Assembly: GCA_902826815.1 (NCBI GenBank)
Contig: CADEGF010000017.1
Coordinates: 43,576-107,575 of the forward strand
Source of the DNA: an uncultured Mycobacteriaceae bacterium
GTDB lineage: Bacteria > Actinomycetota > Actinomycetes > Mycobacteriales > Mycobacteriaceae
Length of the DNA stretch: 64,000 bases
Reading direction: 5' to 3'
Shown here: positions 44,156 through 63,687 of the stretch, one piece after another
How the letters are laid out: each line of letters begins with the position of its first letter
Numbering within the stretch: the first letter of the stretch is position 1
The notes under the pieces: model-generated
What the model saw: only the letters and a program-made list of their open reading frames with translations
Databases searched by the model: none
What the model was told of the DNA's origin: nothing
Translations under genes and position numbers: made by a program

Positions 44156-45508
44156 ATGACGGACACCATGATGGGCGGGCTCGAACTGCAGCAATGCCGC
44201 CGAATCGTCACCGAGATTCCCGGCCCCCGATCGCTCGCGCTGGCCGCCAGGCGCAGGGCCGCGCTCCCTGCGGGCCTGGTCAGTAGCGCGGGGATATACG
44301 CCGCAGCGGCGGGCGGCGGCGTCGTCGTCGACGTGGACGGCAACTCGTTCATCGATCTCGGTAGCGGCATCGCCGTCACGACTGTCGGCAACGCCGCCCC
44401 TGCGGTGGTCACCCGCGCCGCCGATCAGTTGGCGCGCTACACCCACACCTGCTTCCTGGCCACACCCTACGAGCCGTACCTGGAGGTCGCTGAAACGCTG
44501 AACCAGCTGACCCCCGGCACACACGAGAAGCGCACCGCGCTGTTCAACACCGGCAGTGAAGCTGTCGAGAACGCGGTCAAATATGCCCGCGCCGCCACCG
44601 GCCGATCCGCGGTCGTGGTGTTCGATCACGCGTTTCACGGCCGCTCGCTGCTCACCATGTCCATGACCGCCAAGAACCAGCCCTACAAGCGCGGTTTCGG
44701 TCCCTTCGCCCCCGAGGTGTACCGCGCACCGATGGCCTACCCGTTGCGGTGGCCGTCGGGTCCCGACAACTGCGCAGCCGAGGCCTTCAGCCAGTTCACT
44801 CAACTCGTGGACTCCCAACTCGGCGCCGACGCGGTCGCCTGTGTCGTCGTCGAACCCATCCAGGGCGAAGGCGGATTCATCGTGCCCGCAGACGGATTCC
44901 TGCGTTCGGTCGCCGACTTCTGTCGCGACCGCGGGATCCTTCTTGTCGCCGACGAAGTGCAGACCGGCATCGCCCGCACTGGCGCCTGGTTCGCCTGCGA
45001 GCACGAAGGCATCGTGCCCGATCTCATCACCACGGCAAAGGGATTGGCCGGTGGACTGCCGCTGGCCGCGGTCACCGGCCGCGCCGACGTCATGGATGCC
45101 GCGCACGCCGGCGGAATCGGCGGCACCTACAGCGGCAACCCCGTCGCGTGCGCGGCAGCCCTCGGCGCGATCGAGGAGATCGAGAGGGGTGATCTCCTCG
45201 CCCGCGCCCGCACCATCGGTGACGTGATGGTGCACGAACTTCAAAGCATCGCCGCCACCACCGACGTGATCGGCGAGATCCGCGGCCGCGGTGCAATGAT
45301 CGCGGCCGAGTTGATCGTGCGGGGTACCTGCGAGCCCAACCGCGATGCCGTTGCAGCGCTAACGCGCCACTGCCACGATAATGGCGTATTGACTTTGACC
45401 GCAGGCACTTTCGGCAACATCCTGCGGTTCCTGCCGCCACTGTCCATCTCCGACGAACTACTCATCGACGCCTTCGACGTTCTGCGCCAGGCCTTCGCGA
45501 CGCTCTGA
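44156..45508 (+). CDS. class III omega-aminotransferase (GABA / 5-aminovalerate type)
   Basis: A 450-residue PLP enzyme of the GabT family. Substrate and cofactor motifs are FNTGSEAVENAVKYARAAT, VVVFDHAFHGRSLLTMSMT, EPIQGEGGFIVP, LVADEVQTGIARTG, and the PLP lysine in TTAKGLAGGLPL. It converts an omega-amino acid such as GABA or 5-aminovalerate to the semialdehyde, with 2-oxoglutarate as acceptor. The next three genes (glutaryl-CoA dehydrogenase, aldehyde dehydrogenase, CoA-transferase) make 5-aminovalerate the better guess here. It opens a four-gene operon. Confidence 0.88.
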   Translation: MTDTMMGGLELQQCRRIVTEIPGPRSLALAARRRAALPAGLVSSAGIYAAAAGGGVVVDVDGNSFIDLGSGIAVTTVGNAAPAVVTRAADQLARYTHTCFLATPYEPYLEVAETLNQLTPGTHEKRTALFNTGSEAVENAVKYARAATGRSAVVVFDHAFHGRSLLTMSMTAKNQPYKRGFGPFAPEVYRAPMAYPLRWPSGPDNCAAEAFSQFTQLVDSQLGADAVACVVVEPIQGEGGFIVPADGFLRSVADFCRDRGILLVADEVQTGIARTGAWFACEHEGIVPDLITTAKGLAGGLPLAAVTGRADVMDAAHAGGIGGTYSGNPVACAAALGAIEEIERGDLLARARTIGDVMVHELQSIAATTDVIGEIRGRGAMIAAELIVRGTCEPNRDAVAALTRHCHDNGVLTLTAGTFGNILRFLPPLSISDELLIDAFDVLRQAFATL

Positions 45509-45526
45509 CACCTTAGGAGTTCAACC

Positions 45527-46723
45527 ATGACACTCACCACCGCACCGGCTGCGAAGAAGGCCACATACGCACCGCTGGAACTGTTCGACACCGACAGGTT
45601 GCTCGACGCCGATGAACGCGATATCGCGGCCACCGTCCGCAAGTTCGTCGAAACCCGGCTGAAGCCCAACATCGATGACTGGTTCGAATCAGCCACGCTG
45701 CCACGAGAACTGGCCAAGGAGTTCGGCGACCTCGGCGTGCTGGGGATGCATCTCGACGGCTACGGGTGCGCCGGAACCAACGCCGTAAGCTACGGCTTGG
45801 CGTGCATGGAACTGGAAGCGGGCGACAGCGGCTTTCGCAGCTTCGTATCGGTACAGGGCTCGTTATCGATGTTCTCCATCCACCGATATGGCTCTGAAGA
45901 ACAGAAGAACGAGTGGCTGCCGCGCCTGGCCACAGGCGATGCGATCGGCTGCTTCGGCCTGACCGAACCCGACTTCGGCTCCAACCCCGCAGGCATGCGC
46001 ACGCGCGCCCGCCGCGACGGGACCGACTGGGTGCTGGGCGGCACCAAGATGTGGATCACCAACGGCAACCTCGCCGACGTGGCCACGGTGTGGGCACAGA
46101 CCGACGACGGTATCCGTGGCTTCCTGGTACCCACTGACACACCGGGCTTCACCGCCAACGAGATTCACCGCAAGCTGTCGTTGCGCGCCTCGGTGACCTC
46201 CGAACTGGTACTCGACAACGTGCGACTACCGGCATCGGCGCAGCTGCCCCATGCCAGTGGCTTGTCCGCCCCACTGTCGTGTCTGAACGAGGCCCGTTTC
46301 GGTATCGTGTTCGGAGCCTTGGGCGCCGCCCGCGACAGCCTGGAGACCGCCATCGCCTACGCGCAGTCACGCGATGTGTTCGACAAGCCACTGACCGGCT
46401 ACCAGCTCACGCAGGAGAAGCTGGCCAATATGGCCCTCGAACTCGGCAAGGGGCTGTTGCTGGCCATCCATTTGGGCCGCATCAAGGACGCCGAGGGTGT
46501 GCGACCCGAACAGGTCAGCCTTGGCAAGCTCAATAACGTACGCGAAGCAGTCGCGATCGCCCGCGAATGCCGAACGCTGTTGGGCGGCAGCGGAATCACG
46601 CTGGAGTACTCACCTCTGCGGCACGCCAACAACCTGGAGTCCGTGCTGACCTACGAAGGCACCTCCGAGATGCACCTGCTGGCCATCGGCAAGGCACTCA
46701 CGGGCATTGCGGCGTTCCGCTGA
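45527..46723 (+). CDS. glutaryl-CoA dehydrogenase-like acyl-CoA dehydrogenase
   Basis: A 398-residue acyl-CoA dehydrogenase of the GCDH subfamily. GSEEQKNEWLPRLATGDAIG, CFGLTEPDFGSNPAGMRTRA, WITNGNLADVATVWAQTDDG, and IRHKLSLRASVT-type sequence match GCDH; the catalytic Glu is in VLTYEGTSEMH. GCDH oxidises and decarboxylates glutaryl-CoA to crotonyl-CoA. Its place between an omega-aminotransferase and a CaiB-type CoA-transferase fits a glutarate pathway. Starts at ATG 45527 with TTAGGAG upstream. Confidence 0.88.
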   Translation: MTLTTAPAAKKATYAPLELFDTDRLLDADERDIAATVRKFVETRLKPNIDDWFESATLPRELAKEFGDLGVLGMHLDGYGCAGTNAVSYGLACMELEAGDSGFRSFVSVQGSLSMFSIHRYGSEEQKNEWLPRLATGDAIGCFGLTEPDFGSNPAGMRTRARRDGTDWVLGGTKMWITNGNLADVATVWAQTDDGIRGFLVPTDTPGFTANEIHRKLSLRASVTSELVLDNVRLPASAQLPHASGLSAPLSCLNEARFGIVFGALGAARDSLETAIAYAQSRDVFDKPLTGYQLTQEKLANMALELGKGLLLAIHLGRIKDAEGVRPEQVSLGKLNNVREAVAIARECRTLLGGSGITLEYSPLRHANNLESVLTYEGTSEMHLLAIGKALTGIAAFR

Positions 46724-46754
46724 TGAGCGCTTGCGCGAAGAAGAGACAGCGCTG

Positions 46755-48215
46755 ATGACCGGGACACTGCAGCACCTGGTTGCCGGCCGCTGGTTCTCGG
46801 GTACCGGCGACACGCTGGTCAGCCTGAATCCCGCCCGCCCTGCACTCACCGTTGCCGAGGGCGCGGTGGCCGGGGCCACCGACGTCGACGACGCCGTCGC
46901 TGCCGCTACCGCTGCCGGCTCGTCGTGGGCCGCCACCCCGATCCACCAGCGGGGCGCGGTGTTGTCTGCTGCCGCAGACATCGTGGAGCGCCACGCCGAA
47001 TCGTGGGGTGTCGAGCTGGCCACCGAGGAAGGCAAGACCAAGGCCGAAGCGGTCGGCGAGGTGCGTCGGGCCGCGCAGATCCTGCGTTACTACGGCAACG
47101 AGGGTGACCGGCAGACCGGCGAAATCTTCGCCTCCCCCCGCGCCGGCGAGCAGATCCTGGTGACGCGCAAACCCGTCGGCGTCGTCGGCGTCATCACCCC
47201 GTTCAACTTCCCCATCGCGATCCCCGCTTGGAAAATCGGACCCGCACTCGTCTACGGCAACACGGTGGTGTGGAAGCCCGCCAGCACCGTTCCTCTGCTG
47301 GCCACTCGGCTCGCACAGGCACTGTGCGACGCCGGGCTGCCCGCCGGAGTGCTGAACCTGCTCATCGGCGGCGCCGATATCGGCGACGCGATCGTCGGCC
47401 ACGCGGGAGTCGATGCCGTCACCTTCACCGGGTCCACCGGAATCGGCCGACGCATCGCTTCGTCCGCTGCGGCCCGCGGCGTGCCGGTTCAGGCCGAGAT
47501 GGGCGGTAAGAACGCGGCGGTGGTCCTCGACGACGCCGATCTGGATCTGGCCGTCGACCAGGTCATGCTGGGTGCGTTTCGCTCTGCCGGCCAAAAGTGC
47601 ACCGCCACTTCACGATTGATCATCACCGACGGCATCGCCGAGGCGTTCCTGGATTCGCTGACCGAACGAGCGCGTGCCCTGGCAATCGGGAATCCGACAG
47701 ACGAAGCGACCCAGATGGGTCCGGTGATCAGCGAGACGGCGTTGACGTCGATCCAAGCCGGTATCGAGGCGGCCAGCGCGCAGGGAGCCACGATGGTGAC
47801 CGGTGGGGAGCCGTACACCGAGGGCCCGTTGGCCGAAGGCTACTTCGTCACCCCTACCGTCCTCGAAATCGACGGCAGGCCCGCCGACGTCTGGACCGAC
47901 GAGTTGTTCGGACCCGTTCTCGTGGTGCGTCGGGTAGCCGACGCCGACGCGGCGTTCGCCCTGGCCAACGACAGCGAGTTCGGGCTGTCGGCGGCGGTAT
48001 TCACCCGGGATCTCACCCGGGCATTGCAAGCCGTCGATCAGATCGACGTCGGTGTGCTGCACGTCAATTCCGAATCGGCGGGCGCTGACCCCCATGTTCC
48101 GTTCGGCGGCGCCAAAAAGAGCGGGCTCGGCCCAAAGGAGCAGGGCGGCGCGGCACGCGAGTTCTTCACCCACACCACCACGGTGTACCTGCGCGGCGGA
48201 AGTCCGCAGGCATGA
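46755..48215 (+). CDS. aldehyde dehydrogenase family protein
   Basis: A 486-residue NAD(P)-dependent aldehyde dehydrogenase. ATG 46755 (MTGTLQHLVAGRWFSG) is chosen; the longer ORF start overlaps the previous gene. Motifs: GVITPFNFPIAIPAWKIGPA, TFTGSTGIGRRIA, EMGGKNAAVVLDDADLD with the general base Glu, and RSAGQKCTATSR with the catalytic Cys. It could oxidise glutarate semialdehyde, succinate semialdehyde, or a gamma-glutamyl aminoaldehyde. It lies 31 bases after the GCDH gene. Confidence 0.88.
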   Translation: MTGTLQHLVAGRWFSGTGDTLVSLNPARPALTVAEGAVAGATDVDDAVAAATAAGSSWAATPIHQRGAVLSAAADIVERHAESWGVELATEEGKTKAEAVGEVRRAAQILRYYGNEGDRQTGEIFASPRAGEQILVTRKPVGVVGVITPFNFPIAIPAWKIGPALVYGNTVVWKPASTVPLLATRLAQALCDAGLPAGVLNLLIGGADIGDAIVGHAGVDAVTFTGSTGIGRRIASSAAARGVPVQAEMGGKNAAVVLDDADLDLAVDQVMLGAFRSAGQKCTATSRLIITDGIAEAFLDSLTERARALAIGNPTDEATQMGPVISETALTSIQAGIEAASAQGATMVTGGEPYTEGPLAEGYFVTPTVLEIDGRPADVWTDELFGPVLVVRRVADADAAFALANDSEFGLSAAVFTRDLTRALQAVDQIDVGVLHVNSESAGADPHVPFGGAKKSGLGPKEQGGAAREFFTHTTTVYLRGGSPQA

Positions 48216-49327
48216 CAGCCGCGGCGCTTGGCGGTATCCGCGTCGTCGACTTCAGTAGGGTGCTCGCCGGACCGTACGCGACCATGATGCTGGGCGACTT
48301 CGGCGCTGACGTCATCAAGATCGAGCGACCGATCACCGGCGACGACACCCGTCACTGGGGTCCGCCGCACGACTCAAACAGTGTTGCAACATATTTCAAC
48401 GCCGTTAACCGCAACAAGCAGTCGGTCGTGCTGGACCTCATTGACCCCGACGACGCGCAGAGGGCACGTGACCTTGTCGCGGGGGCCGACGTGGTGGTGG
48501 AGAACTTCCGGCCAGGCACCATGGAGAAGCTCGGCCTCGGATACGACGACCTGCGCGCCATCCGACCCGACATCGTTTACTGCTCGATCACCGGATTCGG
48601 CCGTGACGGCGGGGCCGAGCTACCGGGTTATGACCTGCTGGTGCAGGCTGTCGGCGGGCTGATGAGTGTCACCGGTACCGAGCCCGGTGACCCCACCAAA
48701 GCTGGTGTGGCAGTGGTGGATGTGCTGGCCGGACTGCATGCGCTGAGCGGCATCCTTGCCGCGCTGGTGCACCGCGACCGAACCGGAGAGGGGCAGCGGG
48801 TGGACACCAACCTGCTCTCAGTCCTGCTGTCCTCCATGGTGAATCAAGCCTCTGGATATCTTGGGGCGGGCGTGGTTCCCGGCATCATGGGCAACCGGCA
48901 TCCGAGTATCACCCCTTACCAGACTTTCGAGACCGCCGATCGACCCATCGCGGTAGCCGTCGGCAACGACAAGCAGTTCAGGGCGTTCGCCTCCGCGATA
49001 GGTCGACCCGAGCTCGCCGACGAGCCGCGGTTCCTCACCAACCCGCTGCGCGTGACCAACCGGGATGCCCTGTGCGACTTGATCGAACCCGCCCTGAAGG
49101 TCGACGGCGCCGACCGCTGGTATGCGAAGTTGACCGCTGCGGGCGTCCCCGCCGGACCCATCAACGATCTAGCCGAAGCCTTCGCGTTCGCCCGCGGGCT
49201 CGGGATCGAGGCGGCGGTCACAGTCCCAGACAGCGTCACCCCTCAGGTCGCCAATCCGGTAACCCTGTCAGCCACGCCCGTCACCTACCGCAACGGCCCG
49301 CCGCGACTCGGGGATACGCCGTCATGA
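48212..49327 (+). CDS. CaiB/BaiF family (class III) CoA-transferase
   Basis: A 371-residue class III CoA-transferase. RVVDFSRVLAGPYATMMLGDFGADVIKIE and NRNKQSVVLDLIDPDD are the N-terminal signatures, and RTGEGQRVDTNLLSVLL holds the conserved Asp region. Class III enzymes include the succinyl-CoA:glutarate CoA-transferase, which would supply glutaryl-CoA to the neighbouring dehydrogenase. It overlaps the ALDH stop by 4 bases and ends 6 bases into the convergent PucR gene. End of the aminotransferase operon. Confidence 0.87.
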   Translation: MTAAALGGIRVVDFSRVLAGPYATMMLGDFGADVIKIERPITGDDTRHWGPPHDSNSVATYFNAVNRNKQSVVLDLIDPDDAQRARDLVAGADVVVENFRPGTMEKLGLGYDDLRAIRPDIVYCSITGFGRDGGAELPGYDLLVQAVGGLMSVTGTEPGDPTKAGVAVVDVLAGLHALSGILAALVHRDRTGEGQRVDTNLLSVLLSSMVNQASGYLGAGVVPGIMGNRHPSITPYQTFETADRPIAVAVGNDKQFRAFASAIGRPELADEPRFLTNPLRVTNRDALCDLIEPALKVDGADRWYAKLTAAGVPAGPINDLAEAFAFARGLGIEAAVTVPDSVTPQVANPVTLSATPVTYRNGPPRLGDTPS

Positions 49328-50812
49328 ACTGGTTCTGATCGCCAACAGCTTCCGCGCGTGGATGGCTAGCCAGAGTTGGGTCCGCGTATCTGCCGACTGC
49401 AGGTCGTCGGCCAACAGGTCACTGATGCGTTGGAAACGATTGCGCATCGTGTGGCGGTGGACACCCAGCGCCGCAGCGGCTGCTTCGATCTGACCGTTGT
49501 GGCCCAGGAAGGCCGCCAACGTGTCGACCAGGTCCTCGCCCTGCTCGGCAAGCGGATCCAATGCCGCTGCCAGCACACGTAGCTCAGCGGTAGTGCGACC
49601 ACCGAGCATGATGCCGAACGCCCCGAGGTCGGCGAATTCGCCGAATGCTCCGGCGGCACTCGACCGGGCGGCTATGCGGGCCTGCTCCAACCCCACGTCC
49701 AGATCGCCGAAGCGCACAGGCCTACTCGCACCGCCGCGGCACCCGTCGAGCTCGGTGAGAACGCCCACGATCCGCCGTTTGCCTCCGGCGGCAGGCACGA
49801 CGATCACCACCTCGTCGTCGATCGGAGCCATCAGGTAGGGACCCGATGCGGCCAGCGCTCGGCCCAGGTCCTGTTCGGCAGCCAGTAGCGGACCCGCGTT
49901 GTCAAGTGACACCACCAGCACATCACCGTTGGGTTCGAAACCGAAGTACCTCAGCACACCGCTGTCGACGGTGCCTGCGCCGCCAAGCGTCTCGCGCGTC
50001 ACCGCCGTACGCAGGCGCTGCTCGGCGTCGACCACACGGGCGGGCTTTTCGAGCGCGAGCGAAATCAGCGATACCGCGTGCGCCACGAGCAAGCGGTTGG
50101 AGTTGTCCAGCGGCTGGGCCGACCGCACCGCGAGATGGCCGCGAATGGGTTGGGCAGCACGGAGTTTCTGCACAACGATAAACGCGTCTCCGTCGGTGGT
50201 GACGATCCCGGCGTGTTGCGATGTCCCTGGTAGGTCACCCAGAACGGCGTCGAGCCGATCCTGCTCGGATCCGCCGCCGGCCAACAGCCGACCATCGGTG
50301 TCGGCCACCGCCACCGTCGCGCCAAGGCAGTCGGCCAATGCGCGGACGACGCCGGGGATACCGCCCCGCAATGTCGCTCGTGCGAGTATCTCCTGTTGAT
50401 CCACCACCTGCTGCACGGATCGCAGCTCGTCGGCTTTCAGTGCGTCGACGACCACACGTGCGATCGCGATGAACGGCGTCGACGCTGGCACCTCGAGTAC
50501 GGGCAGCCCCAGTTCGTCGCCTGCGCCGAGCACGCCTGCGGGGACCGCAGTGAAGGTGGTTCCGGTGTCGACCGCCAGCGCAGCGGTACCTGCAGAAACG
50601 AGGCGCGATACGTAATCGAACTGTGCCTCATCGTCGACACCGAGGTTGATACCTGTGGTCATCACCAGCTCGCCACCGTCGAGATACGGTGTGGGATCAG
50701 TTAACTCGATGGCGTGGGCCCACGTGATGTCCCGGTCGGAGGCGGGTACCCCTGCGACCAGTGACAGACGAAGGTCCTCGACGTGAGCCAGGCCCCGCGC
50801 GGTGATCGCCAT
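49322..50812 (-). CDS. PucR-family transcriptional regulator
   Basis: A 496-residue regulator starting at ATG 50812 (MAITARGLAHVEDLRLSLVAG), not at the far-upstream 51292. It has the N-terminal PucR domain (ITWAHAIELTDPTPYLDGGELVM), a central CdaR GGDEF-like part, and the C-terminal HTH (LAAFLGHNGQIEAAAAALGVHRHTMRNRF). PucR proteins often control catabolism of nitrogenous compounds. It is the last gene of a long minus-strand operon with gamma-glutamyl and P450 genes. It probably regulates both operons of this block. Confidence 0.9.
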   Translation of the reverse strand: MAITARGLAHVEDLRLSLVAGVPASDRDITWAHAIELTDPTPYLDGGELVMTTGINLGVDDEAQFDYVSRLVSAGTAALAVDTGTTFTAVPAGVLGAGDELGLPVLEVPASTPFIAIARVVVDALKADELRSVQQVVDQQEILARATLRGGIPGVVRALADCLGATVAVADTDGRLLAGGGSEQDRLDAVLGDLPGTSQHAGIVTTDGDAFIVVQKLRAAQPIRGHLAVRSAQPLDNSNRLLVAHAVSLISLALEKPARVVDAEQRLRTAVTRETLGGAGTVDSGVLRYFGFEPNGDVLVVSLDNAGPLLAAEQDLGRALAASGPYLMAPIDDEVVIVVPAAGGKRRIVGVLTELDGCRGGASRPVRFGDLDVGLEQARIAARSSAAGAFGEFADLGAFGIMLGGRTTAELRVLAAALDPLAEQGEDLVDTLAAFLGHNGQIEAAAAALGVHRHTMRNRFQRISDLLADDLQSADTRTQLWLAIHARKLLAIRTSS

Positions 50813-50828: not shown

Positions 50829-51620
50829 CTACGCGACGCGGCCCTGCCGTGATTGCTCGGCCGCTTCGACGAATGCGCTGAACAGGCGCATCCGGTCCTC
50901 GTACGATCCGTTCTCGTCTTCGGGGTGCCACTGTATGCCGAGGAACCAGCGCGCAGGGTCCTCGATGCTCTCGACCATGCCGTCCAGTGCGCGCCCCCCG
51001 ACCACCAGTCGCTCCCCCACGCGGTCCACCGCCTGGTGGTGACCGGTGCGCCCGATGACGCGATCCGCATCGAGGATGGCCGCCAGCCGGGTGCCCCGGG
51101 CGATGTCGATGGTTTCGTCGACGAATATCGGCTCGCCGGGCGCGCCGTGGTGCAACGCATAGTCGACGATGTCGATGGTGCCGCCACGTGAGACGTTGAG
51201 CAGCTGGATTCCGCGGCAGATGCCGAAGATCGGGATGTCGGCGGCCTCAGCGGCCGCGATCGCGGCGAACGCATCGCGATCGGCGCGCGCATCGACGCCG
51301 TAAGTGGTCGGATTCGGGGTGGTGACGCCGTAGCATGCGCCGTCGATGTCGCCGCCGCCGAGCATCAGCAGCCCGTCGAACGCCGCAGCGTCAGAGGGGT
51401 TCTCGAGCTCCTCAGTCGTGTCCCACAGTTCGTAGGACGCACCGAGTTCGAGCAAGGTTGTCAGCGCTGTCCGGGTGAACCGCCTCACGATCTCGATGTC
51501 GTCGGTCTTCATGTCCGGATAGTTGAGCGACCCCAGGACACAGATGTGAGCGCGCGTCGTCTCCGGCATTTCGCGATCAGGGATCACATCTGACTGGAGC
51601 ACCCGATCATCGGCGGTCAC
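50829..51620 (-). CDS. gamma-glutamyl-gamma-aminobutyrate hydrolase-like (PuuD) class I GATase, copy 1
   Basis: A 263-residue class I glutamine amidotransferase-fold hydrolase. I start at GTG 51620, whose GTGA overlaps the stop of copy 2. Catalytic Cys is in FGICRGIQLLNVSRGG; the His-Glu pair is in GIQWHPEDENG. PuuD relatives cut the gamma-glutamyl group from gamma-glutamyl-GABA or similar amides. It is paired with a second copy and with a glutamine-synthetase-like ligase, so the two ends of a glutamylation-deglutamylation cycle are present. Confidence 0.88.
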   Translation of the reverse strand: MTADDRVLQSDVIPDREMPETTRAHICVLGSLNYPDMKTDDIEIVRRFTRTALTTLLELGASYELWDTTEELENPSDAAAFDGLLMLGGGDIDGACYGVTTPNPTTYGVDARADRDAFAAIAAAEAADIPIFGICRGIQLLNVSRGGTIDIVDYALHHGAPGEPIFVDETIDIARGTRLAAILDADRVIGRTGHHQAVDRVGERLVVGGRALDGMVESIEDPARWFLGIQWHPEDENGSYEDRMRLFSAFVEAAEQSRQGRVA

Positions 51621-52330
51621 GTCGAGTCCTTTCTCTTGCGGGCACGGTCGACCAGGTCGGCGAAGAGTGCCGCGTCGCTGTCCGACGTCGCGTGGCAGTC
51701 CTCCGGGTGCCACTGCACGGCGACGATATCGGCGCGTTGGTGCTCGACCGCTTCGACGAGATCGTCGGCCGCCACCGCGCTCACCGCCAATCCGGCGCCC
51801 AATCGGTCGATGGCCTGATGGTGGTAGGACGACACGTCGATGTTCTCGGTGCCGACGATGGCATGCAGTCGCGAGCCGACTGTCACCCCTACCTGATGGA
51901 TTGCGTTGTGGTGCGCAGTGCTCGTCTCGCGCACGTGCTGCACAAGCGTTCCCCCCAGCGCGACGTTGAGGATCTGCATGCCCCGGCAGATCGCCAACAT
52001 CGGTAGGTCGGCGTCGACTACGGCCAGGGTGACGCCGATGTCGAGGTCATCCTGGAAGGCCACGATGTCGGTGCTGCGCGGATCGGGCTCGGCACCGTAT
52101 CTACGCGGGTCGATATCGGCACCACCGGGCATCAGCACACCGTCGAAATTGGCTAGCCGCGCTGGCAATTCGCTCAGTGGATCGGCGGCAGGCCCGTGCA
52201 GTACCACCGGTTCGCCGCCCGCGGCCAACACCGCTTCGCAGATCGCTTCGGCGGCAAGGGTGGCCGAGAACCGCAGGATCGGCACCTGCGCGGCGCGCCG
52301 TCCGATGACCGCAACGAGGGGCCGACTCAT
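51617..52330 (-). CDS. gamma-glutamyl-gamma-aminobutyrate hydrolase-like (PuuD) class I GATase, copy 2
   Basis: A 237-residue hydrolase of the same family as copy 1. The nucleophile motif is LAICRGMQILNVALGGTLVQH, and the His-Glu pair is in AVQWHPEDCH. GGADIDPRRYG matches the PuuD substrate-loop region. The two copies differ in sequence along their length, so they may have different specificity or form a hetero-oligomer. Its start follows the solute-binding gene by 3 bases. Confidence 0.88.
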   Translation of the reverse strand: MSRPLVAVIGRRAAQVPILRFSATLAAEAICEAVLAAGGEPVVLHGPAADPLSELPARLANFDGVLMPGGADIDPRRYGAEPDPRSTDIVAFQDDLDIGVTLAVVDADLPMLAICRGMQILNVALGGTLVQHVRETSTAHHNAIHQVGVTVGSRLHAIVGTENIDVSSYHHQAIDRLGAGLAVSAVAADDLVEAVEHQRADIVAVQWHPEDCHATSDSDAALFADLVDRARKRKDST

Positions 52331-52333
52331 CGC

Positions 52334-53041
52334 TCACACCTCGTCGAACGGGTAGTCGAGGGTCGGCAGCCACTCCTTCCACACCTCGCGAAGGCGCCCG
52401 TTGGAGACGACACGTCCCAGCGCTGCGTCGATTTCGGCGAGGGTGTCGGGTCGGTCCTTGGACACCGCGATTCCCCACTTGTTCGCGGTCTGCACGGTGA
52501 ACGCGAGTTCGTAGTCGGGGTGTGTCGCGCCGAGCGGGACGAACACGACATCGTCGTCGACTACAGCGTCCACCTGCTCGGTAAGCAACGCCGCCAGCAT
52601 GTCGGCGTAGACATCGTCGGATCCCGCCCCGAAGGCCACCGGCACTGCGCCGGTGAAGGTTTCGGCGAGCGCCATATTGGTGCTGTCCTCGATGGCGGCG
52701 ACCTTGCGCCCCACCAGATCCTGCGGGCCGTTGATCTCGGCGCCACGGCGGACAAGTACGCCCTCGTGGAAGACGGCGTAGGGCCGGGTGAAGTCGACCT
52801 GGGCGAGTCGCTCGGCGGTGATGCCCTGACCGCACAGGACGGCGTCGGCGTCGCCGCGCTGCACCGCCGGGATCATGTCGACCCACGGCACCCTGACCCA
52901 TTCGACGGAGCGGCCGAGTTCGGCGCCAAGGGCTTCGGCGACCCCCGGCTCATAGCCCCGCCGACCGTGATCACGGGTCCACAGCGAGAACAGCGGAGGC
53001 GCTTCGGCATCCAGACACGCCAGCCGCAGAGAGTCGCTCAC
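52334..53041 (-). CDS. solute-binding-domain protein (SBP_bac_3 type) without signal peptide
   Basis: A 235-residue protein with the fold of amino acid ABC-transporter binding proteins: LRLACLDAEAPPLFSLW, GYEPGVAEALGAELGRSVEWV, MIPAVQRGDADAVLCGQGIT, and IDAALGRVVSNGRLREVWKEW. There is no signal peptide or lipobox: the protein begins MSDSLRLACLD, at the first strand of the domain. No ABC permease or ATPase genes are near. It lies between the GATase and the GS-like genes with a 4-base overlap to the latter, so it may act in the cytosol as a binding or enzyme-like (cyclohexadienyl-dehydratase-type) protein. Confidence 0.8.
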   Translation of the reverse strand: MSDSLRLACLDAEAPPLFSLWTRDHGRRGYEPGVAEALGAELGRSVEWVRVPWVDMIPAVQRGDADAVLCGQGITAERLAQVDFTRPYAVFHEGVLVRRGAEINGPQDLVGRKVAAIEDSTNMALAETFTGAVPVAFGAGSDDVYADMLAALLTEQVDAVVDDDVVFVPLGATHPDYELAFTVQTANKWGIAVSKDRPDTLAEIDAALGRVVSNGRLREVWKEWLPTLDYPFDEV

Positions 53042-54423
53042 GGGGCATCATTCCAATACATTTCGCGCTCCCAATCGGTGACGTGACCACAGAACCGAGC
53101 CCATTCGTCGGTATGGAAATCGATCAGCAACTCCGAAAGCGTCGGCCCGAAGGCCCCTGTCAGCACTTTGTCGGTACGGAAGGCGCTGATCGCCTCCCCC
53201 AGCGTCAGCGGTAACGCCGGGAACCGGTCGTCGTGCGGGGTGTCGTAGGACGAACCCTTCGTCGGCTCGCCGGGGTCGGTCGCGTTCTTCATGCCGTCCT
53301 CGCACGCCGCCAGGATCACCGCATGGGACAGGTACGGGTTGACGCTGGCGTCGGGCAGCTTGTACTCCAGGCGTCCGTTGGCCGAAAGCCGGACGGTGCA
53401 GGTCTTGTTGTCCAGCCCCCAGTTGATCCGCGACGGCGCGAATTGTCCTGCGTCCCAATAACGTTTATAGGAGTTCACGGTCGACCCGTTGACGAGCATG
53501 GCGCCCGCGGAATGGCACAACAGCCCGCCGAGGGCATGCTTGCCGATCTCGGAAAGGTGCAGTTCGGTTACTCCTGGGTCGATGAGGACGTTCACGTCAT
53601 CGCGCCAGAGGCTGAAGTTGTGGTGACAACCGTTACCCATCTGGCCGGTCGCAGGCTTGGGCATGAAGCTCGCCTCGATGCCGAGTTCGCGTGCGACCTG
53701 CTTGCAAATCTGGCGATAGGTGGTGAGTCGATCGGCGGTGAGATCGGCACGGTCGTACATGAAGTTGAGTTCCACCTGGAACTCATCCTCATAGTCGCCT
53801 TCGATCATGTCGAGACCGAGTGCCTGCGCGTATTCGATGACCTTCTTGACGATCGGCCGGTTCCGCTCGAGGTGTTCGATGTGATACGCGGGACTGGAAC
53901 CCGGCCGGAACTGGGCTTCGAGTCCTTCACCCTGCCAGGTCATTTCGGGCTCACAGCCGGTACGCAGCTCCAACCCGGTCCGATCGGTGAACCGGGCATG
54001 CATACGACGAAGCAGCCCACGGCTGTCACAGGCGAATTCGGCTCCTGCCCCTTGCGCCAGATGGTCGGGTTCGTAGAGCCGGCAGAACACCCTGGCGTAG
54101 CTGGTGTCCCACGGCAGCACGGCGAAAGTGTCGAGATCCGGTACCGCGGTGTACTCGGGGGCGTGCACTCCACCTGCGAGCAGTACACCCTCCCGGGTGC
54201 CCTGCAGGTTGGCGACCGCAGTCTGGTGCTGCTGAACGCCTTTGGCGGCCAGGCGGGCGAAGTGCCGCGCGGGCACCACCTTGCCGACGACGCGGCCGGT
54301 GATGGTGACTGCCTGGAAGTACACGAATTCCACGCCGCGTTCGGCGATCGCCGTCAACGCCGCCTCGAGTTCGGGTCCCGTGGCGTTCCCCTGCCGGTGC
54401 GCGTCCAGTGCTGTCGTGGACAT
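53038..54423 (-). CDS. glutamine-synthetase-family gamma-glutamyl-amine ligase (PuuA/GlnA3-like)
   Basis: A 461-residue GS-fold ligase starting at ATG 54423 (MSTTALDAHR). Metal and substrate motifs are MIEGDYEDEFQVELNFMY, GNGCHHNFSLW, and INWGLDNKTCTVRLSANGRLEYKLPD. The N-terminal part lacks the usual start of GlnA type I and fits the group that glutamylates amines (putrescine, ethanolamine, isopropylamine). It is encoded 4 bases after a ferredoxin and P450, and from memory a GS-like gene lies near the P450 genes for morpholine and piperidine use in mycobacteria. It would form gamma-glutamyl amides that the two PuuD-like hydrolases cut. Confidence 0.87.
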   Translation of the reverse strand: MSTTALDAHRQGNATGPELEAALTAIAERGVEFVYFQAVTITGRVVGKVVPARHFARLAAKGVQQHQTAVANLQGTREGVLLAGGVHAPEYTAVPDLDTFAVLPWDTSYARVFCRLYEPDHLAQGAGAEFACDSRGLLRRMHARFTDRTGLELRTGCEPEMTWQGEGLEAQFRPGSSPAYHIEHLERNRPIVKKVIEYAQALGLDMIEGDYEDEFQVELNFMYDRADLTADRLTTYRQICKQVARELGIEASFMPKPATGQMGNGCHHNFSLWRDDVNVLIDPGVTELHLSEIGKHALGGLLCHSAGAMLVNGSTVNSYKRYWDAGQFAPSRINWGLDNKTCTVRLSANGRLEYKLPDASVNPYLSHAVILAACEDGMKNATDPGEPTKGSSYDTPHDDRFPALPLTLGEAISAFRTDKVLTGAFGPTLSELLIDFHTDEWARFCGHVTDWEREMYWNDAP

Positions 54424-54427
54424 CGGA

Positions 54428-54616
54428 TCAGTCCTCGATGAGGATGGCCTGGGCCGGGCAGACGTCCGCGGCCTCCTCGACGTTGCCGCGCTCCGAGTCG
54501 TCGGGATTGCCGTTGTATTCCAGCTTTCCGTCGTCGTCCAGGTTGAACACAAGTGGGGCGGCGATGGCGCACTGACCGTGATCCTGGCATTTCGCGAGAT
54601 CGACTGTGACACGCAT
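54428..54616 (-). CDS. [3Fe-4S]-type ferredoxin
   Basis: A 62-residue ferredoxin. CQDHGQC and the later VCPAQAI give three cluster cysteines, as in P450-linked [3Fe-4S] ferredoxins. It lies between the P450 gene (35 bases upstream) and the GS-like gene (4 bases downstream) and should be the electron donor of that P450. No ferredoxin reductase gene is in the operon, so a shared cellular reductase would be needed. Confidence 0.9.
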   Translation of the reverse strand: MRVTVDLAKCQDHGQCAIAAPLVFNLDDDGKLEYNGNPDDSERGNVEEAADVCPAQAILIED

Positions 54617-54651
54617 TTTTCAAGGATCCTTTCCTGGGCTGTTGGGTGGGA

Positions 54652-55854
54652 TCAGGGGGCTGGTGTGAAACCGATGGGCAGTCGGATCGGGCCGGTGTTG
54701 CCGGAGTCGGGCAGCCATTGTGCGCCGGGCAGCTCGTACGGATCGGGCATCCGCCTGGCGAGCAGCGGGAGTGCCTCGCTCATGTCGGAACGGGCCACGA
54801 AGTGGCCGAGGCAGTGGTGCGCTCCGCCGCCGAAACCGAAGTGCGGCTTGCGTTCTGCGGTGATATCGAAGCCGGAGTCGAAGACGCGGGGGTCGGTGCC
54901 TGCGGACTCGCTGTAGAGGTGCACGGTGGTGCCCGCCTCGAGCAGCAGACCGTCGTAGGTGAAATCCTCCAACACCTCGCGGGTGACCCATCGGACGGTC
55001 GGATTCACCCGCATGACCTCCTCGACGGCTTTACCGCCGAGGTCGGGACGCGCCGCGAGCAGTCGCCACTGGTCGGTGTTGGCCATGAACGTCTGCATGG
55101 CCAGACCCAGCTGATTGCGGGTGGTGTCGAAACCACCGAAGATGAGCAGCACCATGGCATCTCGGAGTTCGGTGTCGGACATCCGGCCGTCTTCCGGTCG
55201 CGATGCGTTCACCAACGCGGTGACGAAATCGTCGCGCGGATTGGCCCGGCGATCGGCGATCATCTCGTCGCTGTAGTCGTAGAGCCGTTGCAGGGCCGTC
55301 TCGATCTTGGGCAGGTCCTCGCGCAGCGTGACGCCCATCGCAAGACCGATCGTGGCCGACTCGGTCGAGATGACCTTCCACTCCCCCTCGGGAATCCCGA
55401 GCATGATCGCGATGACGCGGGCCGCATAGGGTTCGGCGAACTCGCTGACGAACTCGCAGCGATCGGGCTCGGCGAAACCGTCGATGAGCTCGTTGCCAAG
55501 GGCCTGGAACCTCGGCACAAGTGAACCGATGAGCTTGTGCGAAAAGGCCGGGTTCATCAGCCGGCGCAACCGGTGGTGCTCCTCGCCTTCTTTGTTGAGG
55601 ATCCAGCTGGCGAACCAGGCGGCGAAGGGCCCATCGGTGACGCCGTTGTGGGCGGGCCAGGCGACGCTGCCCTGCCGCAGCTTCGGATGCTTGAGCAGAC
55701 GGCTCACCTGTTCGTAACGCAGGACGGCGATGCCGTACGGCGTGGTGGCGTACCAGCTTCGCTCCCGGGCCTGATGGACCTCGTCGGAGGTGATCGCGAA
55801 CGACGGGTCGGCGACGTCGAACGCGGGAACCGGACCGACGGTGAGAGACGACAT
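54652..55854 (-). CDS. cytochrome P450, candidate CYP151-like amine monooxygenase
   Basis: A 400-residue soluble P450. The I-helix reads LLIFGGFDTTRNQ with the acid-alcohol pair; the ExxR is EEVMR; the haem loop FGFGGGAHHCLGHF gives the ligand Cys348. GGAGG lies 8 bases before the ATG at 55854. The gene order GntR regulator, P450, small ferredoxin, GS-like ligase is like the pip/mor genes of mycobacteria that use piperidine, pyrrolidine or morpholine, where CYP151 hydroxylates the carbon next to nitrogen. That assignment is by context and length, not by alignment. Confidence 0.85.
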   Translation of the reverse strand: MSSLTVGPVPAFDVADPSFAITSDEVHQARERSWYATTPYGIAVLRYEQVSRLLKHPKLRQGSVAWPAHNGVTDGPFAAWFASWILNKEGEEHHRLRRLMNPAFSHKLIGSLVPRFQALGNELIDGFAEPDRCEFVSEFAEPYAARVIAIMLGIPEGEWKVISTESATIGLAMGVTLREDLPKIETALQRLYDYSDEMIADRRANPRDDFVTALVNASRPEDGRMSDTELRDAMVLLIFGGFDTTRNQLGLAMQTFMANTDQWRLLAARPDLGGKAVEEVMRVNPTVRWVTREVLEDFTYDGLLLEAGTTVHLYSESAGTDPRVFDSGFDITAERKPHFGFGGGAHHCLGHFVARSDMSEALPLLARRMPDPYELPGAQWLPDSGNTGPIRLPIGFTPAP

Positions 55855-55893
55855 AGGCGCTACCTCCAGGCAGGATTCAACTGGCTGCGCTTA

Positions 55894-55923
55894 AATCCTC
55901 TAGAAGTAGGTGTTATTTGTCAA
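55894..55923 (-). promoter_or_regulatory. promoter candidate for the P450-ferredoxin-GS operon
   Basis: On the minus strand TTGACA (55918-55923) is a perfect -35 box, and 17 bases later GAGGAT (55895-55900) is a weak -10. It lies about 40 bases before the P450 ATG. The stretch between them includes the small palindrome TCTAGA, a possible operator. Confidence 0.4.
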
Positions 55924-55955
55924 GGGGCCGTCGGTCGGCCGCCGCCCGGTGTCCC

Positions 55956-56675
55956 CTATGGCCACGCGACAGCAAGCACCCAACCGGTGCCAAGCGGCAT
56001 CTCAACGACCTCCCGGAACGCGGTCGGGTCTGCCGACGGGCCTGCCGTCGGCAGCTGGGGCAGCCGCGCACCGACCATCCACCTGGAGGTGTTGGCGGTG
56101 ATGACACGACGTTCGGCGCTGACGACGACGGCGTCCTCTGGCGTCTGCCGCAAGGCCGCGAGTAGTCGGTGCTCGACTTCGGCAACCACCAGATCGGCGC
56201 CGGCGATGCCAAGGAAAACTCCGTCAGCAAGGACGGGGATCGTGGCGGTGATCGTGTACATATCCGATCCGCTGTAGTCCACGTAGGGCCCGTAGGCCAC
56301 CCGGGCCTGTCCGCGCAGTGCCAGCTGATACCAGTCCATCTGGAGGTAGTCGTAGACATCGACGCTGGCCGGGTCGAAGTTGAGCCGCAGGCGGGCAACG
56401 CGCTCACCGTGCCGCTGCCACCACATCAAGTAACGTTCTCTGCCCTCCACCACCGATGGCGCCGCGATGAAGCCCATCCCCCACACCGCCATTTCCTCGC
56501 CGATGAAGTCCACAAGCAGGCGTTGCAACGGCTTGAGTTGCGCCTCGGTGAGCGACGACCGCTCGGGCCTGACCCGAATCACCTCATCGGCGATGCGGCC
56601 AAGCCGCTGATAGATCGGTTCGATGGCTTGCGATGCCCGCTCGGCAAGCTGGCGGGCCTGCGTTTCGCCACTCAT
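55956..56675 (-). CDS. soluble cache-domain protein coupled to a GntR regulator
   Basis: A 239-residue protein with no signal peptide or membrane helix. The second half has the cache (PDC-sensor) pattern: YDYLQMDWYQLALRG, GPYVDYSGSDMYTITATIPV, and GVFLGIAGADLVVAEVEHRL. Cache domains are normally outside the membrane and bind amines, amino acids or carboxylates. The N-terminal half is helical. Its ATG overlaps the stop of the GntR gene by 4 bases, so the two are made together. It may bind the same inducer as the GntR protein or act as a cytoplasmic sensor. Confidence 0.75.
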   Translation of the reverse strand: MSGETQARQLAERASQAIEPIYQRLGRIADEVIRVRPERSSLTEAQLKPLQRLLVDFIGEEMAVWGMGFIAAPSVVEGRERYLMWWQRHGERVARLRLNFDPASVDVYDYLQMDWYQLALRGQARVAYGPYVDYSGSDMYTITATIPVLADGVFLGIAGADLVVAEVEHRLLAALRQTPEDAVVVSAERRVITANTSRWMVGARLPQLPTAGPSADPTAFREVVEMPLGTGWVLAVAWP

Positions 56676-57412
56676 GCCATGAGTCCTTCGGTCGAGAGCT
56701 CGAGATTCACTTCTGTCAGCCGCCCGAGTTGGCCCATCACGTGCTCTTCGGCCAGCCGACGCGCGACGTCGGCGTTCTCGGAGGCGATGGCCGTGGCGAT
56801 CGCGTGCTTCTCTTCGATATAGGCGGCCACGTCTACACCGGGGGTGACCGGTAGCCAGACGAAGCCGGAGATCTCGGCCTGCAGGTTGGCTTCACGCCTG
56901 GCCAGCCGACTGGACTGGGAGGCGACAGCCACCTGGATGTGAAATCTGCTGTCGGCGCGGATGCGCTCGCCGAGCGACGAGGCCGAGCCCAGTTGATCGG
57001 TCAGCGCGAACAGTCTCCGAACGGCGTAGGGCGCGGCCCGCTCAGCTGCCAGACGTGCCGACTGCCCGGCGATCGCCGTGTGCTCGTCGAACAGATCGCG
57101 CAAATCGGATGGGCTCAGGTCGGCCAGCCTCGCCGTCAGCGCCTCGACGGGCGGACTTGCGGGCCTTCGCACGAACGAGCCGCCGCTGCGGCCGCGGCGG
57201 GTCTCCACCAGACCCTGGCCACGCAAAGTTGCCAAGGCCTCACGAACCGTCATGGGCGCGACGCCGAACTGGGCCGCGAGGTCGAGCTCGACCGGCAGGC
57301 GTTCGCCGTCATCGAGCAGTCCGAGGTGAATGGCCTCGGTGACACGCTGCACGATTTCGTCCGCACGTCCAAGCGGCGATTCGGACGCGACGAGCGGCGA
57401 CAACGACGACAT
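56672..57412 (-). CDS. GntR-family (FadR-type) transcriptional regulator
   Basis: A 246-residue regulator starting at ATG 57412 (MSSLSPLVASE). The winged HTH is EIVQRVTEAIHLGLLDDGER and VAPMTVREALATLRGQGLVETRRGRSGGSF. The C-terminal FCD-type helical domain shows DLFDEHTAIAGQSARLAA and DSRFHIQVAVASQS. It is two genes upstream of the P450 and divergent from an APC permease. Mycobacterial pip genes are controlled by a GntR protein (PipR), which supports a role in controlling the P450 operon and the permease. Confidence 0.88.
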   Translation of the reverse strand: MSSLSPLVASESPLGRADEIVQRVTEAIHLGLLDDGERLPVELDLAAQFGVAPMTVREALATLRGQGLVETRRGRSGGSFVRRPASPPVEALTARLADLSPSDLRDLFDEHTAIAGQSARLAAERAAPYAVRRLFALTDQLGSASSLGERIRADSRFHIQVAVASQSSRLARREANLQAEISGFVWLPVTPGVDVAAYIEEKHAIATAIASENADVARRLAEEHVMGQLGRLTEVNLELSTEGLMA

Positions 57413-57474: not shown

Positions 57475-57553
57475 TTTGGTTGCCGCTTAAACAATAAGAA
57501 TGTAGTTTTCCGCACAGCTCGCAACCCACCCAACCCCTGGAGGAGAGCCGCCC

Positions 57554-61064: not shown

Positions 61065-61134
61065 CCGCGTTGGAATTAAACGGTTGTTGAAATCGTTTCG
61101 CCTGGTGTATACATCGCAAGTCAGGAGGTCGTCG

Positions 61135-61788: not shown

Positions 61789-61790
61789 TG

Positions 61791-61854
61791 CCGCGAGCGT
61801 GCGTAGTTGTACACCTGTCCGCGGCGTGTCGTGTGCAAACGCGCTCGCTCGCGG
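61791..61854. repeat. palindromic intergenic repeat between convergent genes
   Basis: CCGCGAGCG (61791-61799) is mirrored by CGCTCGCGG (61846-61854) with GTGCGTAGTTGTACACC and GTGTGCAAACGCG-like arms between. I remember similar CCGCGAGCGTGCG elements being common between genes in mycobacterial genomes. It lies in the 94-base gap between the nitroreductase and cyp142 stops, where a two-way terminator would be expected. Confidence 0.55.
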
Positions 61855-61882
61855 TGCAAGGTGCCCTGCGACGGCGCGACGG

Positions 61883-63079: not shown

Positions 63080-63152
63080 GCCTGCCTCCATCGGTTGATA
63101 AGCGAATGTAGACGACCCGTCAACCACCCGATCTGCATTACCGTGATCCGGC

Positions 63153-63668: not shown

Positions 63669-63687
63669 CCGAACTACAGTGACGGGC

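What the first reader, a model, noticed from the sequence alone, without database searches (positions are those of the whole stretch)
50829..57412. A candidate P450-dependent cyclic-amine pathway with gamma-glutamyl protection
Seven genes on one strand (GntR, soluble cache protein, P450, [3Fe-4S] ferredoxin, GS-like ligase, binding protein, two PuuD-like hydrolases) end with a PucR regulator. Known: mycobacterial pip/mor genes use CYP151 P450s, a small ferredoxin and a GntR regulator for piperidine, pyrrolidine or morpholine, and a GS-like gene is nearby. Inferred: the P450 opens the ring, the ligase glutamylates the freed amine so the aminoaldehyde cannot recyclise, and the hydrolases remove the glutamate later. 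The amine oxidase (PuuB-type) of normal gamma-glutamyl pathways is absent, so the P450 may fill that step.
Basis: partly seen in the sequence, partly recalled or inferred. Interest (0 to 1): 0.85.

Follow-up and report, generated by a model that had tools for sequence, protein, structure and literature searches.

The report
P450-started pathway that degrades ring amines
A soil mycobacterium carries a conserved set of genes that probably opens nitrogen rings such as piperidine with a P450 enzyme, tags the unstable product with glutamate while it is oxidised, and feeds the carbon into the glutarate pathway; the P450 core is a known kind, the tagging half and its helper proteins are not worked out.

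Summary
The operon is real (window 57412 to 49322, minus strand; nine genes, not seven) and recurs far beyond mycobacteria. In 56 kept loci with the P450 and a GS-like gene (50% identity or more), the binding protein and first PuuD-like hydrolase are present in 56 of 56. P450 and GS occur in the same 17 of 148 same-genus genomes. The GS has lost the ammonium-site residues but keeps the metal and glutamate residues, so an amine ligase is likelier than an ammonia assimilator. Three aldehyde dehydrogenases tested from inside related clusters score best with PuuC, below its cut-off. The convergent operon looks like a 5-aminovalerate/glutarate route, which points to piperidine. Two proteins were under-read: the 'binding protein' is cytosolic and keeps amino-acid-binding residues; the cache protein is a soluble sensor that has lost the carboxylate-binding Arg. 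A conserved operator-like site occurs once in the genome. Step order, substrate and the strict CYP151 name remain unproved, a published lactam route for a related ring is a live rival, and the window operon itself has no PuuC. New variant of a known kind.

The parts
56672..57412 (-). GntR/FCD regulator (246 aa)
   Evidence: Pfam GntR 57.8 bits, FCD 54.8 bits; overlaps the Cache start by 4 nt
55956..56675 (-). Soluble dCache sensor protein (239 aa), probable partner of GntR
   Evidence: MCP-like_PDC_1 41.6 bits; no membrane-like stretch (19-residue hydropathy 1.6 or more) in the first 60 residues of 58 relatives; model pLDDT 94.3; dCache folds in PDB
54652..55854 (-). Cytochrome P450, CYP151-like (400 aa)
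   Evidence: p450 74.4 bits; best PDB match 3p3l (AurH) 231 bits, 35.5% identity; heme Cys C348 in 93 of 93 relatives
54428..54616 (-). Ferredoxin, 62 aa, CxxHxxC...CP
   Evidence: Fer4_15 46.4 bits; motif in 68 of 68 relatives of 45% identity or more
53038..54423 (-). GS-like ligase (461 aa), probably gamma-glutamyl-amine forming
   Evidence: Gln-synt_C 235.9 bits; closest PDB sequence glutamate-methylamine ligase 9qur, 206.7 bits; ammonium-site residues replaced
52334..53041 (-). Cytosolic family-3 binding protein (235 aa, GTG start)
   Evidence: SBP_bac_3 86.5 bits; starts at the mature domain, as do its relatives; model pLDDT 93.4; R78, D162, D163 in 76 of 76
51617..52330 (-). PuuD-like hydrolase 1 (237 aa)
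   Evidence: Peptidase_C26 181.6 bits; C115 and E210 in 75 of 75, H208 in 74 of 75
50829..51569 (-). PuuD-like hydrolase 2 (246 aa)
   Evidence: Peptidase_C26 113.2 bits (longer start used); C118, H215, E217 in 69 of 69
49322..50812 (-). PucR-type regulator (496 aa)
   Evidence: PucR 93.8 bits, HTH_30 68.1 bits
57489..57509 (+). Operator-like element AAACAATAAGAATGTAGTTTT in the GntR/permease spacer
   Evidence: 35 of 50 distinct spacers with up to 4 substitutions, simple shuffles 0.05 of 50; one site in the window and one in the genome
57554..59062 (+). Divergent APC-type permease, probable amine uptake
   Evidence: AA_permease_2 143.3 bits; a relative in the same stretch in 54 of 56 loci
44156..45508 (+). 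GabT-type transaminase (glutarate module)
   Evidence: NCBIfam PRK06058 4-aminobutyrate transaminase 708.7 bits, cut-off 639
45527..46723 (+). Glutaryl-CoA dehydrogenase (glutarate module)
   Evidence: 3swo glutaryl-CoA dehydrogenase 821.8 bits; no NCBIfam model over its cut-off
46755..48215 (+). Semialdehyde dehydrogenase (glutarate module)
   Evidence: best NCBIfam alpha-ketoglutaric semialdehyde DH 500 bits, below cut-off 770
48212..49327 (+). Family III CoA transferase, glutarate type
   Evidence: best NCBIfam succinate-glutarate CoA-transferase 366 bits, below cut-off 750

Best explanation
A pip/mor-type catabolic operon for a cyclic secondary amine, most likely piperidine. The permease imports the amine. 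The P450, fed by the operon's ferredoxin, hydroxylates the carbon next to nitrogen; the hemiaminal opens to an aminoaldehyde (5-aminopentanal for piperidine). The GS-like ligase couples the freed amine to the gamma-carboxyl of glutamate with ATP, so the aldehyde cannot close to the cyclic imine. An aldehyde dehydrogenase makes the acid. A PuuD-type hydrolase releases glutamate and 5-aminovalerate, which the convergent operon turns into glutarate semialdehyde, glutarate, glutaryl-CoA and crotonyl-CoA. The cytosolic binding protein probably holds a gamma-glutamyl intermediate; the soluble cache protein probably senses the amine for GntR. Shown by sequence: gene content, active-site state, conservation, linkage. 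Inferred: order of steps, substrate, the roles of the two binding proteins.
For: P450+GS+SBP+PuuD1 together in 56 of 56 kept loci. P450 (57% identity or more; split over two frames in G009 and G055) and GS (53% or more) in the same 17 of 148 same-genus genomes. GS: D50->H 79/79, S53->A 73/79, E327->F 79/79, with E129, E131, E212, E220, H269, R321, E357 kept 79/79 (numbering recalled from Salmonella GS; some loci appear twice). Closest solved relative by sequence is glutamate-methylamine ligase. Both hydrolases keep Cys/His/Glu. Embedded dehydrogenases in three clusters tested score best with PuuC (602, 595, 564 bits), all below its cut-off of 850. Glutarate module adjacent here; GcdH or CaiB relatives inside 28 of 56 stretches, in different arrangements. 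PMC9477822 (section 8 read): MorA with its partners oxidises free morpholine, pipA is induced on piperidine, and a GS transcript listed as GMOLON4_438/3052, tags next to the P450s 437 and 3051, is overexpressed on the cyclic-amine herbicide molinate.
Against: No PuuC-like gene in this operon; the genome's two best PuuC-like genes lie on other contigs (C38, and C11 in a second P450 cluster), and two of four other genomes tested (G097, G617) have none at 1e-150. PMC9477822 proposes a different fate for the azepane ring (dehydrogenation to caprolactam, then hydrolysis; a hydrolase acting on caprolactam was shown), reads the GS as ammonium assimilation, and found pipA itself not significantly overexpressed, unlike the related bioI. 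P450 is only 35.5% identical to AurH, the one CYP151-labelled sequence at hand. The transaminase passes a GABA transaminase model, so a C4 ring (pyrrolidine) is not excluded. R339 and R359 equivalents are Lys in 68 and 69 of 79 operon GS, an odd change. GcdH or CaiB was not seen in 28 of 56 stretches (flanks cut at 10 kb).
Confidence: 0.58

Rival explanations
1. Ligase first: the GS glutamylates the ring amine itself to a gamma-glutamyl amide, and the P450 then oxidises that amide, as in the gamma-glutamylanilide route of aniline degradation (recalled). The hydrolases finish.
For: The GS site is altered away from ammonia; oxygenase + GS-like + GATase-like is the same set as recalled for aniline; the order of steps cannot be read from sequence.
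Against: PMC9477822 (section 8) states that MorA with ferredoxin and reductase oxidises free morpholine. PuuC-like dehydrogenases in related clusters fit a gamma-glutamyl aminoaldehyde.
Confidence: 0.15
2. Side branch: the P450 and dehydrogenases run the whole ring opening, and the GS/PuuD pair only scavenges or detoxifies the amine or 5-aminovalerate.
For: No PuuC in this operon; the glutarate module can handle free 5-aminovalerate.
Against: Constant linkage of GS, SBP and PuuD1 to the P450 (56 of 56) and the identical set of 17 of 148 genomes suggest a main-path role.
Confidence: 0.11
3. Lactam route: the 2-hydroxy amine is dehydrogenated to a lactam, which a hydrolase opens to the amino acid; no aminoaldehyde needs protection.
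For: Proposed for the azepane ring of molinate in Gulosibacter, where an overexpressed hydrolase (chnC) degraded caprolactam in resting cells (PMC9477822, section 8).
Against: None of the nine genes or the permease is an alcohol dehydrogenase or lactamase by Pfam, and the route leaves the GS and PuuD genes without a task.
Confidence: 0.08
4. The GS is an ordinary ammonia-assimilating enzyme co-induced because the amine is a nitrogen source.
For: This is how PMC9477822 reads GS overexpression.
Against: Ammonium-site Asp, Ser and flap Glu are replaced in 79, 73 and 79 of 79 operon GS; of seven other own-genome GS-like proteins aligned there, two (L001, L002) keep all three.
Confidence: 0.03
5. 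A linear polyamine pathway (putrescine or cadaverine) in which the P450 is incidental.
For: A GS-like enzyme starts polyamine glutamylation in Streptomyces coelicolor (PMC5403932, abstract and passages); the transaminase is of the GABA type.
Against: No PuuB-type amine oxidase in the nine genes; in the genus the GS is found only where the P450 is found (17 of 148 genomes for both).
Confidence: 0.05

Closest known systems
pip genes of Mycobacterium smegmatis and mor genes of Mycobacterium sp. HE5 (CYP151 P450 systems)
   Same: GntR-type regulator, P450, small ferredoxin, GS-like gene in that order (gene order recalled; function lines from PMC9477822, section 8). A ferredoxin reductase follows the ferredoxin in many relatives, as recalled for mor.
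   Different: The window has no reductase gene between ferredoxin and GS. As I recall, the published clusters end in a truncated GS, so SBP, two PuuD and PucR go beyond what was described. Identity to PipA/MorA not measured.
Puu gamma-glutamyl putrescine pathway (PuuA, PuuB, PuuC, PuuD)
   Same: GS-type ligase, PuuC-like dehydrogenase in related clusters, PuuD-type hydrolases, GABA-type transaminase and semialdehyde dehydrogenase next door.
   Different: Oxidation comes from a P450 rather than the flavin oxidase PuuB, and probably before the glutamylation rather than after. The window operon has no PuuC.
Gamma-glutamylanilide route of aniline degradation (recalled)
   Same: GS-like plus GATase-like enzymes with an oxygenase.
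   Different: There the ligase acts first and the oxygenase is a Rieske dioxygenase; here a P450.
Plasmid pGKT2 of Gordonia sp. KTR9 (RDX locus, recalled)
   Same: GntR/FCD, cache protein, P450 (69% identical) and GS (73%) in the same order.
   Different: The GS is part of an 814-aa frame that runs through an annotated FAD-dependent oxidoreductase; a second P450 follows; no SBP or PuuD match in the 25-kb stretch.
dCache_1AM amine sensors (PMC10104139)
   Same: Aromatic residues and the Asp of the site kept; carboxylate-binding Arg lost.
   Different: Soluble stand-alone protein encoded with a GntR; several AM-motif positions not tested.

Membership tests
CYP151 P450s (PipA/MorA) | About 40% identity or more to a named CYP151 member (rule recalled) | tested here: inconclusive
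   PipA and MorA sequences not available; 35.5% to AurH, which PMC7369989 lists as CYP151A; 69% to the KTR9 plasmid P450, recalled as CYP151C
CYP151 P450s (PipA/MorA) | Neighbouring GntR, small ferredoxin and GS | tested here: met
CYP151 P450s (PipA/MorA) | Oxidises cyclic secondary amines | not testable with these tools
   needs assay
Gamma-glutamyl amine ligases (GS-like) | Metal and glutamate residues kept, ammonium site lost | tested here: met
Gamma-glutamyl amine ligases (GS-like) | Reaches the cut-off of a named NCBIfam model | tested here: not met
   286.1 of 469.6 bits (type III), 216.9 of 429.15 (GlnA), 196.3 of 650 (GGputSyn)
PuuD gamma-glutamyl hydrolases | Peptidase_C26 with Cys-His-Glu | tested here: met
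PuuD gamma-glutamyl hydrolases | NCBIfam PRK11366 cut-off | tested here: not met
   76.7 and 52.9 of 266 bits
Puu pathway | PuuB flavin oxidase in the operon | tested here: not met
   no such domain in the nine genes
Puu pathway | PuuC dehydrogenase in the operon | tested here: not met
   none among the nine genes; PuuC-like in three related clusters
ABC-transporter binding proteins, family 3 | Signal peptide and export | tested here: not met
   75 of 76 relatives start 3-16 residues before the first conserved strand (the one other, L089, was called as starting at it); no hydrophobic N-terminal stretch
ABC-transporter binding proteins, family 3 | Fold and Arg/Asp of the amino-acid site | tested here: met
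dCache_1AM sensors | Loss of R126; aromatic pair and terminal Asp kept | tested here: met
   R126 position Met in 54 of 58 (Arg in 1); W115 in 55 of 58; Y or F116 in 58 of 58; D161 in 58 of 58 (PctA alignment; motif from PMC10104139 passages)
dCache_1AM sensors | Arg-Asp pair above the site (R103/D133 of PctD), W155, M215, S217 | not tested
   no PctD alignment made

The most novel reading that the evidence does not exclude
The operon is a gamma-glutamyl pathway in which a P450 takes the place of the amine oxidase, and it carries two sensor-fold proteins moved into the cytosol: a binding protein, co-translated with the ligase, that shelters or channels the reactive gamma-glutamyl aminoaldehyde (or catalyses a step on it), and a stand-alone dCache protein that reports the free ring amine to GntR.
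Probability: 0.33. Interest if true: 0.78.

Novelty: new variant of a known kind. Interest (0 to 1): 0.6.

Why it matters
Piperidine, pyrrolidine and morpholine rings are common in drugs, pesticides and industrial chemicals. The P450 that starts their breakdown is known, but what happens to the aminoaldehyde is not worked out in anything I could read. If the glutamate tag is the answer, it explains why a GS-like gene lies beside these P450s, gives a complete testable route to glutaryl-CoA, and shows a general trick for keeping aminoaldehydes open. The cytosolic binding protein and soluble cache sensor would be unusual uses of two large sensor families.

Tried and rejected
Tried and led nowhere or weak: (1) Getting the PipA or MorA sequence. 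One search (GcdH chain of 3swo against 396 genomes) gave 98% and 97% relatives (G344, G076) but no exact match, so M. smegmatis was not identified; one search gave G344's P450 at 87%. The 1999 pip paper is not held. (2) PuuC for the window operon: absent from it; C38's PuuC-like gene sits near a flavin oxidoreductase, a LysR regulator and an M20 peptidase, so it is not claimed as a part. The ALDH beside the permease in L044 is nearest succinate-semialdehyde dehydrogenases, not PuuC. (3) Cytosolic SBP without the P450: one search covered 246 class-wide genomes at E <= 1e-45; 2 matched (G000 and G617). G617's contig has the length of L105's, so it is probably the same locus; I fetched it and did not analyse it further. 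(4) Literature: nine searches. None listed a paper on gamma-glutamylation in pip/mor degradation; PMC9397018, a review of polyamine and ethanolamine use, has no occurrence of P450, piperidine or morpholine. The library holds only open-licence papers, so this is not proof of absence. (5) Exact inverted repeats with 6-bp arms in the spacer: none shared; the conserved element is an imperfect palindrome by eye only. (6) The second P450 of the window (61883-63091) is not claimed as a part: 31% to AurH, beyond the divergent permease, kinase and nitroreductase.

Rows dropped before counts: one search kept 56 of 77 loci (window plus 76): P450 coverage over 70% and GS at 50% or more. The 21 dropped are 19 whose best GS match is 39-42% (L106-L122, L126, L130) and two with a partial or split P450 but a GS of 85-88% (L131, L133). 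Six of the eight loci counted without a cache protein do have a match, below the 70% coverage limit. Operator: 15 of 50 spacers had no match. Odds: after rereading PMC9477822 I added the lactam rival and lowered the best explanation from 0.62 to 0.58.
Full report
What is there. The window lies on a 6.87-Mb genome whose nearest named P450 relatives are Mycolicibacterium. Nine genes run on the minus strand from 57412 to 49322: GntR, cache protein, P450, ferredoxin, GS-like ligase, family-3 binding protein (SBP), two PuuD-like hydrolases and PucR. Gaps are -4 to 101 nt. A permease is divergent (57554-59062), and a convergent operon on the plus strand (44156-49327) encodes a GabT-type transaminase, glutaryl-CoA dehydrogenase, a semialdehyde dehydrogenase and a family III CoA transferase.

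Conservation. One scan of species genomes with the P450 gave 76 loci, in Mycolicibacterium, Nocardioides, Streptomyces, Intrasporangium, Arthrobacter, Brevibacterium and others, and in Alphaproteobacteria. Of 56 loci (window included) with the P450 and a GS at 50% or more, SBP is in 56, PuuD1 in 56, PuuD2 in 53, GntR in 54, cache in 48 (six more have shorter matches), permease in 54, ferredoxin in 44. In 33 of the 44 with ferredoxin there is a gap of 1.19-1.45 kb between ferredoxin and GS. The gene in it is a Pyr_redox_2 reductase in the three of these tested (L059, L077, L082), and the gene after the ferredoxin is one too in the two alphaproteobacterial clusters tested (L106, L114). The window has none. 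Where both are found, GntR and cache stay side by side even when they switch side or strand. In the same genus, P450 (57% or more; split over two frames in two genomes) and GS (53% or more) occur in the same 17 of 148 genomes.

The ligase. Its best NCBIfam models are type III GS, GlnA and gamma-glutamylputrescine synthetase, all under their cut-offs; its nearest PDB sequence is glutamate-methylamine ligase. Against the own-genome GS on L001, the ammonium-site Asp50 is His in 79 of 79, Ser53 is Ala in 73 of 79 and flap Glu327 is Phe in 79 of 79, while E129, E131, E212, E220, H269, R321, R344 and E357 are kept in all 79; R339 and R359 are Lys in 68 and 69 (residue names recalled). This fits an amine ligase.

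Hydrolases and dehydrogenases. Both PuuD proteins keep Cys, His and Glu, with one exception in 144 proteins. In the Streptomyces loci an aldehyde dehydrogenase lies between PuuD1 and PuuD2. Three embedded dehydrogenases tested (Streptomyces brasiliensis L082, Xanthobacter agilis L114, and the second P450 cluster of the own genome) all score best with PuuC (602, 595, 564 bits; cut-off 850). In L082 and L114 the genes from the P450 to the last hydrolase are accounted for and none is a PuuB-type oxidase; other clusters were not scanned for one. Against: the window's own operon has no PuuC, and two of four other genomes tested have none at 1e-150; here the semialdehyde dehydrogenase at 46755 may do both oxidations (inference).

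The ring size. The adjacent glutarate module (3swo glutaryl-CoA dehydrogenase 821.8 bits; succinate-glutarate CoA-transferase as best model, below cut-off) suits 5-aminovalerate, hence piperidine. The transaminase passes a GABA model, so pyrrolidine is not excluded. Relatives of GcdH or CaiB occur in 28 of 56 stretches, in different orders in Streptomyces, Humibacillus, Nocardioides and Arthrobacter. Flanks end at 10 kb, so 28 is a lower bound; still, half show none.

The binding protein. Of 76 relatives, 75 start 3-16 residues before the first conserved strand (in L089 the start was called at it); only one (L098) has a 19-residue stretch of hydropathy 1.6 or more in the first 60, at residues 39-57, not at the N-terminus. 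The invariant C9 lies in that first strand, too close to the start for a lipobox (inference). The model (pLDDT 93.4) matches amino-acid and opine binding proteins, including SocA with deoxyfructosyl-glutamine. Arg78 and Asp163, which align with the alpha-carboxylate and alpha-amino contacts of the family (roles recalled), are kept in 76 of 76. A cytosolic protein that binds an alpha-amino acid, overlapping the gene of a glutamate ligase, suggests a gamma-glutamyl ligand. This is inference. It was not seen by tblastn in the 19 alphaproteobacterial-type clusters, so it is not needed for the chemistry everywhere.

The cache protein. In 58 relatives no 19-residue stretch of the first 60 residues reaches hydropathy 1.6; 31 of 58 have one further in, which in the window (146-164) is the core of the modelled domain around D161, so a soluble protein is the likelier reading. 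It folds as dCache (pLDDT 94.3; hits include the amine sensors CqsR, McpU, TlpQ, PctD and also amino-acid receptors). Aligned to PctA, the carboxylate-binding R126 is Met in 54 of 58, while D161 is kept in 58 of 58. PMC10104139 (passages) reports the same loss in amine sensors. Other positions of that motif were not tested.

The operator. The element AAACAATA-N4-TGTAGTTTT lies in the GntR/permease spacer at 57489-57509. With spacing 4-6 and up to four substitutions it is found in 35 of 50 distinct spacers, against a mean of 0.05 of 50 in 20 rounds of simple letter shuffles; once in the window and once in the genome, both at up to three mismatches. The spacers are related, so the count overstates independence; six Streptomyces spacers with 2-4 substitutions argue against mere recency. 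Fifteen spacers lack it.

Known and new. PMC9477822 (section 8 read whole; passages) reports that M. smegmatis pipA is induced on piperidine, that MorA with its partners oxidises morpholine, that two P450s of Gulosibacter (bioI, pipA) are 52-53% identical to them, that bioI but not pipA was strongly overexpressed on molinate, and that a GS listed as GMOLON4_438/3052, tags next to those P450s (437, 3051), was overexpressed. It reads the GS as ammonium assimilation and proposes a lactam route for the ring; the lost ammonium site here argues against the first, and the second stands as a rival. CYP151 is reported only from saprophytes among the mycobacteria of PMC5018878 (passage) and occurs in Alphaproteobacteria (subfamily C, PMC8197338, passage). 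The 1999 description of pipR-pipA-ferredoxin-GS is recalled. I found no paper on the gamma-glutamyl half.

Verdict. New variant of a known kind; interest 0.6.

Noticed in passing
L134 10482-17493 (Gordonia sp. KTR9 plasmid pGKT2): The plasmid recalled as carrying RDX degradation has GntR, cache, P450 (69%), then an 814-aa frame that begins as a GS (73%) and runs through an annotated FAD oxidoreductase, then a second P450: the start of this operon with other genes attached.
   Followed up: partly
L039 and L040 (own genome, contig C11): A second P450 (61%) amine cluster with GS, SBP, PuuD, PuuC-like ALDH, enoyl-CoA hydratase and CoA transferase; a 1349-bp stretch with the GS occurs twice, 100% identical, about 15 kb apart (real duplication or assembly artefact).
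   Followed up: partly
L116-L122 and L130 (Rhizobium, Ciceribacter, Allorhizobium and others): No separate ferredoxin is seen beside the P450; the P450 frame is 959-969 aa in seven loci and 656 in L122. The one tested (L120) is fused to a flavodoxin/FAD/NAD reductase, an architecture like CYP102.
   Followed up: partly
L114 (Xanthobacter), probably L106 and others: Two adjacent GS-like genes follow P450, ferredoxin and reductase, in place of the GS plus SBP of actinobacteria (both GS-like genes confirmed in L114 only).
   Followed up: partly
L072, L075, L079, L080, L090-L095, L097, L124: 12 of 56 loci have no recognisable ferredoxin gene (45% identity or more) in the stretch; another ferredoxin may serve.
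   Followed up: no
L024/L131 (M. litorale F4) and L025/L056 (G055): The P450 match is split over two frames; sequencing error or decay, not resolved.
   Followed up: no
window 59134-63815: Beyond the permease: sensor kinase, LuxR-type response regulator, nitroreductase, another P450 (61883-63091), and a 225-aa frame without a Pfam match.
   Followed up: partly
own genome: 13 GS-like matches in one genome, suggesting several separate amine ligase routes.
   Followed up: no
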